In this document: positions 2,278-5,372 of the stretch, piece after piece
Position numbering within the stretch: position 1 is the first letter of the stretch
How the letters are laid out: each line of letters opens with the position of its first letter
Assembly: GCA_018903055.1 (NCBI GenBank)
Contig: JAHIPW010000007.1
Location: 1 to 5,372 of the forward strand
Reading direction: 5' to 3'
From: DRGV01 sp018903055 [NCBI: bacterium]
GTDB taxonomy: Bacteria; UBP18; UBA7526
DNA length: 5,372 nt
Made by a program: the position numbers and the translations under genes
The notes under the pieces: model-generated
Database searches by the model: none
What the model was told of the DNA's origin: nothing
The model's input: the letters and a program-made list of their open reading frames with translations, nothing else

Positions 2278-2631
2278 TTAATAGTTAGAGGGTAGGCGGA
2301 AGATCTCACCTTTTAATTGTCTATACTTAAAATGGGCCTGATTGAATTCCCGCTCCTTTTCCTTGAAGGCAGATTCGTCCTTGCTAAGATTAATCTCTAT
2401 AGCACGTAGTTTTAATCTTTCTCCCTCATAGGCCGACGGCTTTACTCTGGGCAGAAGAGACCAGAGTCGATCAAGTTGTCTGCGGTATTTACTGATTCTT
2501 CTCTTCCATCGCCATAGTTTAAATCCCCCATACAGAAGTCCCACCTTAGCCAGAATAAAGGGAAAAAGGGCTAAGAAGCGATCCAAAAAATAGATAAAAT
2601 AGTGTTGCTTCTCAGGATAATCTTTTCTCAT
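2278..2631 (-). CDS. Membrane-anchored small protein with LemA-like C-terminal helix
   Basis: The 117-residue product has an N-terminal hydrophobic segment (about residues 12-36, FLDRFLALFPFILAKVGLLY), then a very basic stretch (WRWKRRISKYRRQLDRLW), then charged, probably coiled-coil helices to the end. The final helix contains FNQAHFKYRQLKGEIFRLPSN. LemA proteins end in a closely similar pattern, (Y/F)N-x-A-x3-Y followed by FPSN, although here the distance to PSN is about three residues longer. LemA is a membrane protein of roughly 180-200 residues with a three-helix cytoplasmic or periplasmic bundle. This protein is much shorter and lacks the LKRRxDLIPNLV motif, so it may be a reduced or only distantly related form. 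The start overlaps the preceding release-factor-like stop as ATGA and has no clear Shine-Dalgarno, so it is probably translationally coupled. Existence as a gene is well supported, the family link is tentative. Confidence 0.75.
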   Translation of the reverse strand: MRKDYPEKQHYFIYFLDRFLALFPFILAKVGLLYGGFKLWRWKRRISKYRRQLDRLWSLLPRVKPSAYEGERLKLRAIEINLSKDESAFKEKEREFNQAHFKYRQLKGEIFRLPSNY

Positions 2632-3045: not shown

Positions 3046-3459
3046 TTATTCACCAATAATCTTAACGAGAACCCTCTTTCTTCTCTGACCATCGAACTCC
3101 CCATAGAATATCTGCTCCCAGGGGCCGAAGTCCAATCTACCCTCGGTAATGGCCACCACCACCTCCCGACCCATAATGGTTCTCTTCAAATGGGCATCGC
3201 CGTTATCCTCGCCGGTCTGGTGGTGCTTATAGGCCTTACCATAAGGGGCCAACTTTTCCAGCCACTCTAAAAAGTCCTGATGCAGTCCACTCTCGTTATC
3301 ATTGATGAAGACGCTGGCCGTAATGTGCATAGCATTGACCAAACAGAAGCCCTCTTTGACTTTGCTTTTCCTCACCGCCTCTGCTACCTGGGGAGTGATA
3401 TTAATTAATTCCCTTTTCCTTTTGGTATTGAACCATACTTCCTCTTTGTAAGACTTCAT
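3046..3459 (-). CDS. yjbQ: YjbQ / UPF0047 family protein
   Basis: The 137-residue product matches the whole length of the YjbQ/UPF0047 family, annotated as a secondary thiamine-phosphate synthase because family members show weak activity of that kind. The conserved stretches appear in order: [12 protein letters not shown] (residues 45-56), [16 protein letters not shown] (77-92), and the signature [19 protein letters not shown] (106-124). The clustered His, Asp and Glu residues (H45, E56, H79, H80, D85, D88, H90) fit the metal or ligand pocket seen in structures of the family. No signal peptide is present, so it acts in the cytoplasm. AGGAG lies eight bases before the ATG at 3459. That ATG overlaps the stop of an upstream 52-codon gene as ATGA, which suggests coupling. 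No thiamine biosynthesis gene is nearby, so the physiological role stays open. Confidence 0.96.
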
Positions 3460-3614
3460 TTCTCTAACTCCTCTTCTTCTCTCTCCAGCACTTCTTTAAA
3501 GGAATGTGTCTTCCCTCTCGAGGGAGGCTGGAATTCAGGCAGGTCGGGGTCTCTCTGTTTCCTTTTCCGCAAGACCTCTTTTGATATCTTGGGAATGACT
3601 GATTTTCTCTCCAT
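3456..3614 (-). CDS. Small charged protein, 52 residues, unrecognised
   Basis: The ATG at 3614 opens a 52-codon frame that ends in TGA overlapping the yjbQ start as ATGA. A GGGGGAT stretch (3625-3619) gives a suitable Shine-Dalgarno four to six bases upstream, and the gene begins 13 nt after the stop of the 258-residue protein. The product is soluble and highly charged. It has a basic first half ([20 protein letters not shown]), a proline-rich middle ([13 protein letters not shown]) and an acidic helix at the end ([15 protein letters not shown]). There are no cysteines, no membrane helix and no signal peptide. The frame fills the space between its neighbours almost exactly, which argues for a real gene over chance. 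I do not recognise a family. Its basic front and acidic tail would suit a small adaptor or partner of a larger protein, but that is inference only. Confidence 0.7.
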
Positions 3615-3615
3615 T

Positions 3616-3625
3616 TTTATCCCCC
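3616..3625 (-). promoter_or_regulatory. Ribosome binding site of the 52-codon gene
   Basis: GGGGGATAAA on the minus strand precedes the ATG at 3614 at normal Shine-Dalgarno distance. Together with the 4-nt overlap at the other end, it is the main support for this short gene. Confidence 0.5.
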
Positions 3626-3627
3626 AA

Positions 3628-4404
3628 TTACTCATCGAAGCCCGGGCGTTTAAAAGTACGATGCCCTGGGAATTTTTTATCGATCATCCTGCGTAATCGG
3701 TCCGCCTCTACCAGAAGAGTGAGGGCATCATCCTGCAGGTCCTCATTCCAATGGTAGACCTTCTGTAGAGCAACGATGGACTTCACCACTCCCAGATATG
3801 CTATCTTGGCGCTTCCATTAGCATCGTAGATATCTATCTCGTCCAGTTCTTTATCCTCACTCTTCTCCATCTTCGAGCCCAATGCCCGATAGACCTTTAC
3901 CGAGATTTGGGTATGGTACCAGGATATGATCTCGTGACAAGAGACAATTTCCCTGAGTGTCTCTACGTCCTCCACAGATGAAGGGATAATCTCAATCCGT
4001 TCCGGAAGTTCTATTCCAAAGGCCTGGATCGATTTACGCAATCTCTCAAGGAATTTACGGGCTAAGTCCATATAGTTATGGGAACGCTGATAGAGAGGAT
4101 GTCCCGTGGGATCGGGCGACTCATACTCCTCCTCTGGCAGGTTCTCCAAGTCAATCCCCCGCTCCTTGGCCGTCTTGAGGATCAACTCCTTGGTCTCCTT
4201 AAAGCTTTTTGCAACATCCTTCATTACAATCTTCCAATCGTAGGGATCCTCCCCCTTTCTTCTATGCTCTGCGAGCCTCTTCTGATCCTTGGCATAGAGA
4301 AAGCATTTACTGGTAAGAGAGCAGCGCTCGCACCATCGATCACAGTAGTTATAAATCCCTGAAATAAACTTCTTACCCAAACCTTTCTTCTTCAAATCAC
4401 CCAT
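3628..4404 (-). CDS. Uncharacterised helical protein with N-terminal four-cysteine motif
   Basis: The 258-residue protein opens with a basic segment and then IYNYCDRWCERCSLTSKCFLY, in which Cys21, Cys25, Cys28 and Cys34 form C-x3-C-x2-C-x5-C. This spacing could bind zinc or an iron-sulfur cluster. The rest appears soluble, charged and mostly alpha-helical. Distinctive stretches are SCHEIISWYHTQISVKVYRAL (155-175), with His157 and His164, and DANGSAKIAYLGVVKSIVALQ (194-214), which look like amphipathic helices of a bundle. There is no signal peptide or membrane segment. I have the impression that the YCDRWCERC signature occurs in uncharacterised proteins of other bacteria, but cannot name a family or function. 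AGGAG lies five bases before the ATG at 4404, only 9 nt after the transglycosylase stop. It is followed 13 nt later by the 52-codon gene, so the three are probably cotranscribed. Confidence 0.9.
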   Translation of the reverse strand: MGDLKKKGLGKKFISGIYNYCDRWCERCSLTSKCFLYAKDQKRLAEHRRKGEDPYDWKIVMKDVAKSFKETKELILKTAKERGIDLENLPEEEYESPDPTGHPLYQRSHNYMDLARKFLERLRKSIQAFGIELPERIEIIPSSVEDVETLREIVSCHEIISWYHTQISVKVYRALGSKMEKSEDKELDEIDIYDANGSAKIAYLGVVKSIVALQKVYHWNEDLQDDALTLLVEADRLRRMIDKKFPGHRTFKRPGFDE

Positions 4405-4413
4405 AACTTCTCC

Positions 4414-5372
4414 TCACGAGCGGTAAGGATAGATTTTAATTCTTTGATTGGGATAGATTCTATCTGATTTCAGGTTATTCCATTTCTTCAGCTGCCACAC
4501 ACTTACTCTCTGGTGGCTGGCAATTCTGCCTAAAGTATCACCTTTTTTTACCGTATAAACGATGACTTTTTTCTTTTCAATCTCTTTTTTAGATAAATAT
4601 CTTTCTTCTTCCGGTAACGAAGCGAAGTTCTCTAAGAATATTTCCTTCTTGCCCGGAGGCAATTTTAGAATGTATTCTTCTTTATCGGGCGGAGTACACA
4701 ACTGCTGTAATTCGGGGTTGAATTCCTGTACCTCTTTCAAACTACACTGGGCACATTGGGCTACTAATCTTAAATCAACACAACCCTTCACCTCTACCTC
4801 TTCCCAGAAGATTCCTTCTTCAAAATTAGAAACAAAGCCGAAAATTTCTGGCTCCTTAATAATAAACAGAATAGCCATTATCTTAGGAACGTAATCCTCT
4901 GTCTCACGAGGCAGAGACAATGCCCAGTAGTCCCGGGTTTCGGCCTTCGCTATTGCCTTTTCTACTCTATACTCACCACAATTATAGGCTGCCAAGGCCA
5001 GTTCCCAGGAACCAAACCTCTCATATAAGTCCTTAAATTTTCTGGCTGCTGCCTGGGTGGCCTTTTCGGGATCTCTTCTCTCATCATACCAGTAGTCTAT
5101 CTCCAGTCCGTTTGCCTTGCCAGTATGCTCGATAAACTGCCAGTGACCCACCGCTTTCTTGGGGGACTGGGCAAAGGGATAATATCCAGATTCTACGATG
5201 GCCACATAGGCTAAGTCCTCTGGCAGGGATGCTTCCCGAAAGATCTCCTTTACCCTCTGGATATATTTCTCTGATCTCTTTAACGAACGAGAAAGGCATC
5301 CCCTGCCATTTACGGTATAGTAGTCTATCCATTTCTCCACCCTTGCGTTCCAAATCAAGGGAAAGAGACTGC
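4414..5372 (-). CDS. mltD: MltD-like membrane-bound lytic murein transglycosylase, SLT + LysM (5' end cut by window)
   Basis: The frame is open through the window edge, and the leading residues SLFPLIWNARVEKWIDYY match the segment just before the SLT domain in MltD proteins (typically LVLNERVEKWIxYF). The gene therefore almost certainly starts upstream, and its signal peptide is outside the window. The TTG at 5358 is unlikely to be the real start. Counting from it, the catalytic Glu56 lies in AIVESGYYP, followed by GHWQFIEHTG (71-80), LALAAYNCGEYRV (120-132) and TEDYVPKI (153-160), all SLT family 1 motifs. Residues about 192-236 resemble the NPEL...TPP linker of MltD, and residues 268-309 form a LysM peptidoglycan-binding repeat. 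The enzyme cleaves the MurNAc-GlcNAc bond, giving 1,6-anhydro ends, in the periplasm. Unusual cysteines (CAQC at 202-205, NCGE in place of NAGE) are present. Confidence 0.95.
   Translation of the reverse strand, partial: SLFPLIWNARVEKWIDYYTVNGRGCLSRSLKRSEKYIQRVKEIFREASLPEDLAYVAIVESGYYPFAQSPKKAVGHWQFIEHTGKANGLEIDYWYDERRDPEKATQAAARKFKDLYERFGSWELALAAYNCGEYRVEKAIAKAETRDYWALSLPRETEDYVPKIMAILFIIKEPEIFGFVSNFEEGIFWEEVEVKGCVDLRLVAQCAQCSLKEVQEFNPELQQLCTPPDKEEYILKLPPGKKEIFLENFASLPEEERYLSKKEIEKKKVIVYTVKKGDTLGRIASHQRVSVWQLKKWNNLKSDRIYPNQRIKIYPYRS

What the first reader, a model, noticed from the sequence alone, without database searches (positions are those of the whole stretch)
3628..4404. Unrecognised protein with a C-x3-C-x2-C-x5-C front end and a helical body
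The four closely spaced cysteines at residues 21-34, flanked by aromatic and charged residues, look like a genuine metal-binding knuckle on an otherwise cysteine-poor helical protein (one more Cys at 156, next to His157). No known enzyme motif accompanies it. Cotranscription with a cell-wall transglycosylase and a 52-residue protein makes it the best candidate here for an undescribed function.
Basis: partly seen in the sequence, partly recalled or inferred. Interest (0 to 1): 0.6.

Follow-up and report, generated by a model that had tools for sequence, protein, structure and literature searches.

The report
Undescribed four-cysteine helical protein family
This gene encodes a member of a widespread but unnamed bacterial protein family whose four-cysteine, probably iron-sulphur, front end hardly ever changes; its job is unknown, and it does not depend on the small gene next to it.

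Summary
The 258-residue protein (3628-4404, minus strand) carries C21-x3-C25-x2-C28-x5-C34, and no Pfam, NCBIfam, PHROG, PADLOC or PDB sequence matches it significantly. It belongs to an undescribed family spread over many phyla. All four cysteines are present in 82 of 82 aligned members. They also survive in homologues found with a profile lacking the front end: 29 of 30 loci in one set, 27 of 27 distinct ORFs that reach the front end in another. C156 and H157 are not conserved.

The proposed two-component unit fails. Sister genomes keep mltD and the small gene while the 258-residue gene is missing or decayed, and neither neighbour was found beside the family elsewhere. AlphaFold gives a confident all-helical protein whose four-helix core matches no solved family convincingly.

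The motif spacing resembles [4Fe-4S] sites (endonuclease III, WhiB), so an iron-sulphur helical adaptor is the best reading; zinc remains possible.

An unexpected lead: some Bacteroidota members are fused to a second unnamed cysteine domain. Free copies of that domain lie beside cas genes in 7 of 23 loci read and beside Card1 in two more. One fused member lies inside a type I-B cas operon, one single-domain member before a type I-D-like operon.

The parts
3628..4404 (-). 258-residue protein, member of an undescribed cross-phylum family
   Evidence: ORF; no significant family match; relatives; 82-row alignment
4303..4344 (-). Front-end motif C21-x3-C25-x2-C28-x5-C34 (CDRWCERCSLTSKC), probable metal or Fe-S site
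   Evidence: 82 of 82 conserved; kept in homologues found without it
3664..4098 (-). Predicted four-helix core, residues 103-247, with conserved W162, K170, R173, D194, S198, K200, S209
   Evidence: AlphaFold model pLDDT 88.6, pTM 0.81; conservation; fold comparison
3631..3672 (-). Conserved C-terminal tail FPGHRTFKRPGFDE, residues 245-258 (family: FPxARxFxRPGFD)
   Evidence: P246 82 of 82, R253 81 of 81 ungapped rows, D257 80 of 81
3456..3635 (-). Small downstream ORF (59 aa, or 52 aa from its internal Met); separable neighbour, not a partner
   Evidence: Persists in G005 and G002 without an intact 258-residue gene
4414..5370 (-). Upstream lytic transglycosylase with LysM (MltD-like), open at the contig end; separable neighbour
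   Evidence: Pfam SLT 2.7e-26 and LysM 1.1e-16; matched over 317-318 of 318 residues in 4 of 6 same-family genomes, the own genome included

Best explanation
The protein is a cytosolic helical-bundle protein. Its N-terminal four-cysteine loop binds one metal centre, most likely a [4Fe-4S] cluster. The cluster loop (YNYCDRWCERC...C), the conserved polar residues of the bundle (K170, R173, D194, S198, K200, S209) and the C-terminal RPGFD tail would form one functional surface that docks on a partner protein or nucleic acid, with the cluster as structural staple or redox sensor. It acts as a self-contained, dispensable accessory and not as part of a fixed operon. Shown: the motif, its conservation, the helical prediction, the lack of a known family, and its absence or decay in sister genomes. 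Inferred: the Fe-S identity, the shared surface and the adaptor or sensor role.
For: Four Cys invariant. The spacing C-x2-C-x5-C of the last three Cys equals that of the Fe-S sites of endonuclease III/MutY (Cys-X6-Cys-X2-Cys-X5-Cys, passage in PMC11138216) and WhiB1 (Cys9, 37, 40, 46, passage in PMC5741622). The window's own endonuclease III-like ORF (1568-2221; name from my reading) ends with C-x5-C-x2-C-x5-C. Weak profile matches to WhiB1 cover this loop (E 1.2 and 1.7, not significant). All-helical model, pLDDT 88.6. The Cys loop and the C-terminal tail are the two longest runs of highly conserved columns. Neighbourhoods vary: the commonest recurring neighbour cluster, counted within five genes either side, is seen in 7 of 77 loci. 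At the mltD slot the gene is absent in G005 and G001 and decayed in G002, and a broken copy that keeps the four Cys is seen in G063.
Against: Cysteine spacing alone cannot tell Fe-S from zinc; PMC11138216 says so in a passage seen, and PMC3466216 describes a Cas4-like four-Cys site modelled with zinc. WhiB similarity is not significant, and two unrelated chains score better. The front end alone found no PDB sequence. No coordinates were available to check that the four sulphurs converge or that the tail packs on the loop; the blocks holding the loop have pLDDT 65, 71 and 85 (residues 11-40), lower than most of the body. No operon partner points to a redox role.
Confidence: 0.42

Rival explanations
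1. The four cysteines bind one structural zinc that pins the N-terminus onto the bundle; the protein is otherwise a helical adaptor or binding protein.
For: Four Cys in 14 residues suit a zinc site; Fe-S and zinc motifs are often alike (PMC11138216 passage); titles of relatives name Flavobacteriaceae and Pyrinomonadaceae as well as Desulfobacterales, lineages I recall as aerobic and anaerobic.
Against: The C-x2-C-x5-C spacing matches the Fe-S sites cited; that an x5 gap is unusual for zinc knuckles is recalled knowledge, not a test.
Confidence: 0.3
2. It is an enzyme: the conserved polar residues of the bundle (K170, R173, D194, S198, K200, S209) form an active site and the cluster or metal assists.
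For: These residues are conserved in 79 to 81 of 82 rows, more than folding alone would usually need.
Against: No enzyme family matches significantly; no metabolic neighbour is shared widely; conserved residues of helix 189-219 do not cluster on one face (resultant 0.26).
Confidence: 0.13
3. It is a defence accessory, linked to CRISPR-Cas, that works with a second Cys domain in Bacteroidota, and the window protein is a solo relative.
For: A fused member lies between cas4b and cas3b beside a 39-repeat array; another member (L228) precedes a type I-D-like operon with Csc2 and a WYL-type regulator; free copies of the fused domain have cas genes within about 1.5 kb in 7 of 23 loci read and Card1-type genes in 2 more; the two domains co-occur in 15 of 295 genomes against 4.2 expected.
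Against: Within the same flank only 1 of 29 family loci of that order has cas genes; six other fused loci show none; a simple array finder saw no CRISPR array in the 80 loci; 73 codirectional neighbours of those loci and of L002 gave only generic-looking PADLOC matches; no match in phages, plasmids or viral contigs; none of the nine window ORFs scanned with Pfam is a cas gene.
Confidence: 0.1
4. It is a two-component unit with the downstream small gene or a cell-wall accessory of the MltD-like enzyme.
For: Tight same-strand spacing in the window.
Against: The small gene and mltD persist in G005 and G002 without an intact 258-residue gene; G001 has neither gene next to mltD; neither neighbour was found in the 80 loci.
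Confidence: 0.03

Closest known systems
Endonuclease III / MutY iron-sulphur loop (Cys-X6-Cys-X2-Cys-X5-Cys)
   Same: Last three cysteines have the same spacing (passage in PMC11138216)
   Different: First gap is x3, not x6; no glycosylase domain found; no sequence match
WhiB-like (Wbl) proteins
   Same: C-x2-C-x5-C on a small helical scaffold; weak profile match on the loop (E 1.2)
   Different: First Cys is 28 residues before the second in WhiB1 and 4 here; no GVWGG motif in the window protein; match not significant
Radical SAM CX3CX2C site
   Same: First three cysteines C21-x3-C25-x2-C28 have the same spacing
   Different: Fourth conserved Cys; all-helical model where radical SAM enzymes have a beta/alpha barrel (recalled); no Pfam match
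Cas4 / AddB iron staple
   Same: Four-Cys metal site; a fused relative is encoded next to cas4b in one locus (L214)
   Different: Three C-terminal Cys plus one N-terminal Cys in Cas4 (PMC3466216 passages); no RecB nuclease domain found here
Four-helix-bundle S23 / 23S rRNA IVP proteins (PF05635; 2rld, 2gsc)
   Same: Residues 103-247 superpose on 2rld: Z 12.8, rmsd 2.0, 108 aligned; that 2rld is a PF05635 member follows from its title and recall
   Different: Within the range the tool calls common for bundles; no profile-profile support (hhalign probability 0.2%)

Membership tests
Any Pfam, NCBIfam, PHROG or PADLOC family | Score above curated cut-off or significant E-value | tested here: not met
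   Best Pfam E 0.038 and below cut-off, NCBIfam 0.051 and far below cut-off, PHROG 0.17, PADLOC none at 0.001
The unnamed family described here | YNxC-x3-C-x2-C-x5-C front end, DxxGSAK helix motif, C-terminal RPGFD | tested here: met
   82-row alignment; by construction the window protein is in the profile, so its E 7.6e-84 is no independent proof; the single-sequence hits to relatives are
WhiB-like | Four Cys with distal first Cys | tested here: not met
   First gap is x3; WhiB1 has Cys9 and Cys37
WhiB-like | GVWGG motif after the Cys loop | tested here: not met
   Absent from the 258 residues; motif named in PMC5741622
Radical SAM | CX3CX2C with SAM barrel | tested here: not met
   Spacing is present but the model is all helix and no radical SAM family matches
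Endonuclease III | Helix-hairpin-helix glycosylase domain | tested here: not met
   No Pfam match
Cas4/AddB nucleases | RecB-type nuclease domain | tested here: not met
   No Pfam or PADLOC match for the window protein
S23 / PF05635 four-helix bundle | Sequence profile match | tested here: not met
   hhalign against 25 sequences gathered from PF05635 loci: probability 0.2%; no Pfam hit
S23 / PF05635 four-helix bundle | Fold | tested here: inconclusive
   Z 12.8 to 2rld, within the range the tool calls common for helical bundles
[4Fe-4S] proteins | Bound iron and sulphide | not testable with these tools
   Needs purified protein

The most novel reading that the evidence does not exclude
The family is a new class of Fe-S accessory proteins that, together with a second undescribed Cys domain (fused in some Bacteroidota, free in others), serves CRISPR-Cas immunity, for example at the Cas4-Cas1 spacer-capture step or beside Card1. 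Solo members such as the window's would do the same job for another nucleic-acid system of the host.
Probability: 0.1. Interest if true: 0.75.

Novelty: new variant of a known kind. Interest (0 to 1): 0.42.

Why it matters
A conserved, probably cluster-binding family has no name in any library searched here, yet it was found in 30 of 295 and 27 of 242 sampled genomes of two bacterial orders chosen because they hold known members, and named strains carry it (Draconibacterium, Maribellus, Gracilimonas). A single expression test would settle whether it is a new iron-sulphur family, and the cas-linked fusion partner gives a concrete pathway to test.

Tried and rejected
Two-component unit with the small gene and link to MltD: rejected by sister genomes. 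C156/H157 as extra ligands: not conserved. Known family by sequence: none significant. Fold neighbours: Foldseek gave no E at or below 0.001 in PDB or viral models; the VIA-align list (S23-like 2rld and 2gsc, YicC, copper storage Csp, PMEI, Avd) lies in the range common for bundles, and the S23 profile test failed. Shared operon: no neighbour cluster in more than 7 of 77 loci; close codirectional neighbours (35 downstream, 38 upstream) are mixed. PADLOC names among them (mad3 in 3, mad8 in 1, WYL in 1, AriA in 1; ThsC/HIT in 4) look like generic domain hits, but I did not establish which proteins gave mad3. Mobile-element carriage: no match in plasmids, phages or viral contigs. Literature: no paper holds the string CDRWCERC or CX3CX2CX5C; a CRISPR-linked keyword search gave none; a search on methylation-associated defence gave nothing relevant. 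These searches cover the held PMC library only. Papers: passages only of PMC11138216, PMC5741622 and PMC3466216; all others were seen as listings.

Rows dropped: from the 82-row alignment I left out L001 (own copy), L003 and L005 (the G002 remnant) and L004 (the G063 broken copy); rows were trimmed upstream by script to a nearby Met. In one search, 5 loci (L017, L033, L055, L057, L085) were not placed by my ORF caller; the 77 counted include the window; neighbours rest on ORF calling, not on annotation.

Full report
What is there. The window is one whole contig (C30) of a 1.085-Mb, 191-contig assembly, 85% complete. The likely genes are all on the minus strand: an MltD-like transglycosylase (SLT and LysM domains), the 258-residue protein, a small ORF, a UPF0047 protein, an RF-1-domain protein, a 117-aa ORF, an endonuclease III-like ORF, a carbonic-anhydrase-like hexapeptide ORF, two short hydrophobic ORFs and a PHP-domain protein (nine ORFs were scanned with Pfam, and the endonuclease III and hexapeptide names are my reading of sequences that were not scanned). 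The 258-residue ORF starts 9 bp after the mltD ORF with a GAGGAG ahead of its ATG. The small ORF is 59 aa from its first ATG or 52 aa from an internal Met.

The cysteines. C21, C25, C28 and C34 are at the stated places. A pattern scan of one genome for each of 84,980 species gave 292 relatives (of 300 stretches that matched a pattern, so perhaps a lower bound), of which the best 80 were kept. Aligned with the window protein and the copy from G006, 82 of 82 rows have all four Cys; Y18, N19, D22, R23, W24 and P246 are also invariant in that set. One of the six search patterns covered the motif, so I built a second profile from residues 45-258 alone (A2, 51 rows). In 50 host genomes it found 54 places, one or two per genome. 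In 295 genomes of the order of G425 (Maribellus) it found 30 genomes with a match. In 242 genomes of the order of G430 (a Desulfobacterales assembly) it found 27. Of 30 loci read (L152-L180, and L181, the second copy in G410), 29 have C-x3-C-x2-C-x5-C; in L168 and L170 the script's first match lay in the extra domain and the family motif was seen by eye in the printed sequence. The exception, L177, has lost the whole front end. In the second order 27 of 27 distinct ORFs that reach the front end have the motif (one of them interrupted, L255/L259); the pieces without it begin inside the body (L256, L258, second half of L255/L259). The residues between the first two cysteines vary (DRW, NRW, DGW, DYW, DHW, DQW, DSW, DLW, VRW), the cysteines do not. 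C156 is Cys in 7 of 82.

What it is not. No significant match in Pfam, NCBIfam, PHROGs or PADLOC nor, by single sequence or profile, in the PDB. The profile's weak PDB matches are led by a Nif11-domain protein (E 0.099) and include WhiB1 on the Cys loop at E 1.2; none is significant.

Structure. AlphaFold with the 82-row alignment gave pLDDT 88.6 and pTM 0.81, all helix: 35-49, 57-81, 103-139, 141-180, 189-219, 221-244, besides a short N-terminal helix. Foldseek found no PDB or viral match at E 0.001 or better. VIA-align places residues 103-247 on four-helix bundles, best 2rld (Z 12.8, rmsd 2.0, 108 aligned) and 2gsc (Z 12.2); the tool warns that Z under about 13 may be only a common arrangement for bundles. 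A profile-profile test against 25 sequences gathered from PF05635 loci gave probability 0.2%, so homology to that family is not supported by sequence.

Spread and loss. In 386 genomes drawn as relatives, a profile search found full-length copies only in the own genome and G006, a decayed remnant in G002 and a broken copy in G063 that keeps the four Cys; all other matches were weak (best E 0.0077). In the two order samples about a tenth of genomes have a match (30 of 295; 27 of 242). A tree of 82 rows places the window protein with an unplaced MAG protein (L008, 98/89) and within an eight-row set with WOR-3, Stahlbacteria, Cloacimonadota and Poribacteria rows (98/88); 19 phylum labels need 29 changes where 18 is the minimum, which suggests patchiness, though bins and paralogues can cause the same, and the bootstrap had not settled. 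Plasmid, phage and viral collections gave nothing.

The neighbours. Of 6 same-family genomes, 4 (own, G001, G002, G005) have mltD at full length. G005: mltD, then the small gene about 20 bp on, then the UPF0047 and RF-1 genes, with no 258-residue gene. G002: mltD, a 76-codon open remnant without its start codon, lacking two of the four Cys and most of the body, then the small gene and RF-1 gene. G001: mltD, two UPF0047-like genes, RF-1 gene, neither of the two genes in question. The three sister assemblies are 53-82% complete, but the slot itself was read. Among the 80 loci none shows the small gene or mltD by tblastn in the flank held. Across 77 loci no neighbour cluster occurs in more than 7. 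Close codirectional neighbours scanned with Pfam (35 downstream, 38 upstream) are mixed: downstream DUF2797 in 6 and HIT in 5, upstream M28 peptidase in 5, other unrelated families in 1 or 2.

The fusion. Seven of the 30 loci (L155, L157, L161, L168, L170, L173, L175) carry an extra N-terminal domain of about 150-200 residues with its own Cys cluster; L177 is a truncated fusion, and L051 has the same domain just upstream. The domain has no Pfam match at the gathering score, none in NCBIfam and only doubtful PDB matches (best Crov588, E 1.2e-4 with no stretch passing on its own; protein disulfide-isomerase E 0.02). It was found at 49 places in 41 of 295 genomes, 7 places being the fusions. Of 23 other loci read with about 1.5 kb each side (L189-L211; 42 non-fused places in all, the higher-scoring ones fetched), 7 have cas4, cas1 or cas3 by tblastn (L189, L191, L192, L194, L200, L204, L208; L200 only a short cas4 piece), and L197 and L205 lie beside Card1-type genes (Pfam CARF_Card1 3.4e-35 for L197; L205 by tblastn). 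Family loci of the same order, read with the same flank, show cas genes in 1 of 29 (L157) (Fisher p 0.016, loci treated as independent). The cas queries came from one type I-B locus, so other types may be missed. L157, read longer as L214, is a type I-B locus: a 39-repeat array, cas1b, cas4b, the fused gene, cas3b, cas5b, cas7b. A single-domain member in L228 precedes a UPF0158-like gene, a WYL-type regulator, a 949-aa gene without a match, Csc2/Cas7d (1.4e-30) and a Cas3-like stretch (25% identity, E 2e-11). The two domains co-occur in 15 of 295 genomes against 4.2 expected; without the eight fused or part-fused genomes 7 against 2.5 (hypergeometric p 0.007, not corrected for relatedness). 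The other six fused loci fetched longer have no cas genes by this tblastn.

Most likely working. Cys-X6-Cys-X2-Cys-X5-Cys is the site of endonuclease III/MutY (PMC11138216, passages) and Cys9, 37, 40, 46 that of WhiB1 (PMC5741622, passages); the last two gaps, x2 and x5, are the same here. I therefore prefer a [4Fe-4S] site over zinc, at modest confidence, since the same review says the two are hard to tell apart from sequence. The other conserved blocks are a set of polar residues on the bundle helices and the C-terminal RPGFD tail. I infer one functional surface that serves docking or sensing. No step of function is shown.

Verdict. The lead of most interest is the CRISPR-linked partner domain, which at present covers only a minority of members and none seen in the window's own lineage.

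Noticed in passing
L189, L191, L192, L194, L200, L204, L208 (free copies); L214 5922-7187 (fused): An undescribed ~150-aa domain (MxxYIxQLIEDx..., EFCDYDxxNCPFPGYCNxC) sits near cas3, cas4 or cas1 genes in 7 of 23 loci read, and beside Card1-type genes in L197 and L205: a candidate CRISPR accessory in Bacteroidota.
   Followed up: partly
L161/L212, L164/L228, L177/L196, L195: A UPF0158-like protein (Pfam for L212 and L228, tblastn for the rest) is encoded beside the family, the fused form and the free partner domain in several Bacteroidota loci; SWIM-type proteins likewise (L191, L206, L210, L225, L226; Pfam for L226 only).
   Followed up: partly
G002:C72:27931-28122 and G063:C1:2536832-2537068: Decayed or broken copies of the family gene; in G002 the neighbouring genes remain, which suggests the gene is dispensable in this lineage.
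   Followed up: yes
G000 (PF05635 search): The window's small genome holds 8 matches to the 23S rRNA IVP four-helix-bundle family, five of them over the family cut-off, and its family relatives up to 10: many for a 1-Mb genome.
   Followed up: no
window 2278-2631, 545-733 and 712-1068: Three short ORFs (117, 62 and 118 aa) without a Pfam match above the gathering score; two look hydrophobic.
   Followed up: no
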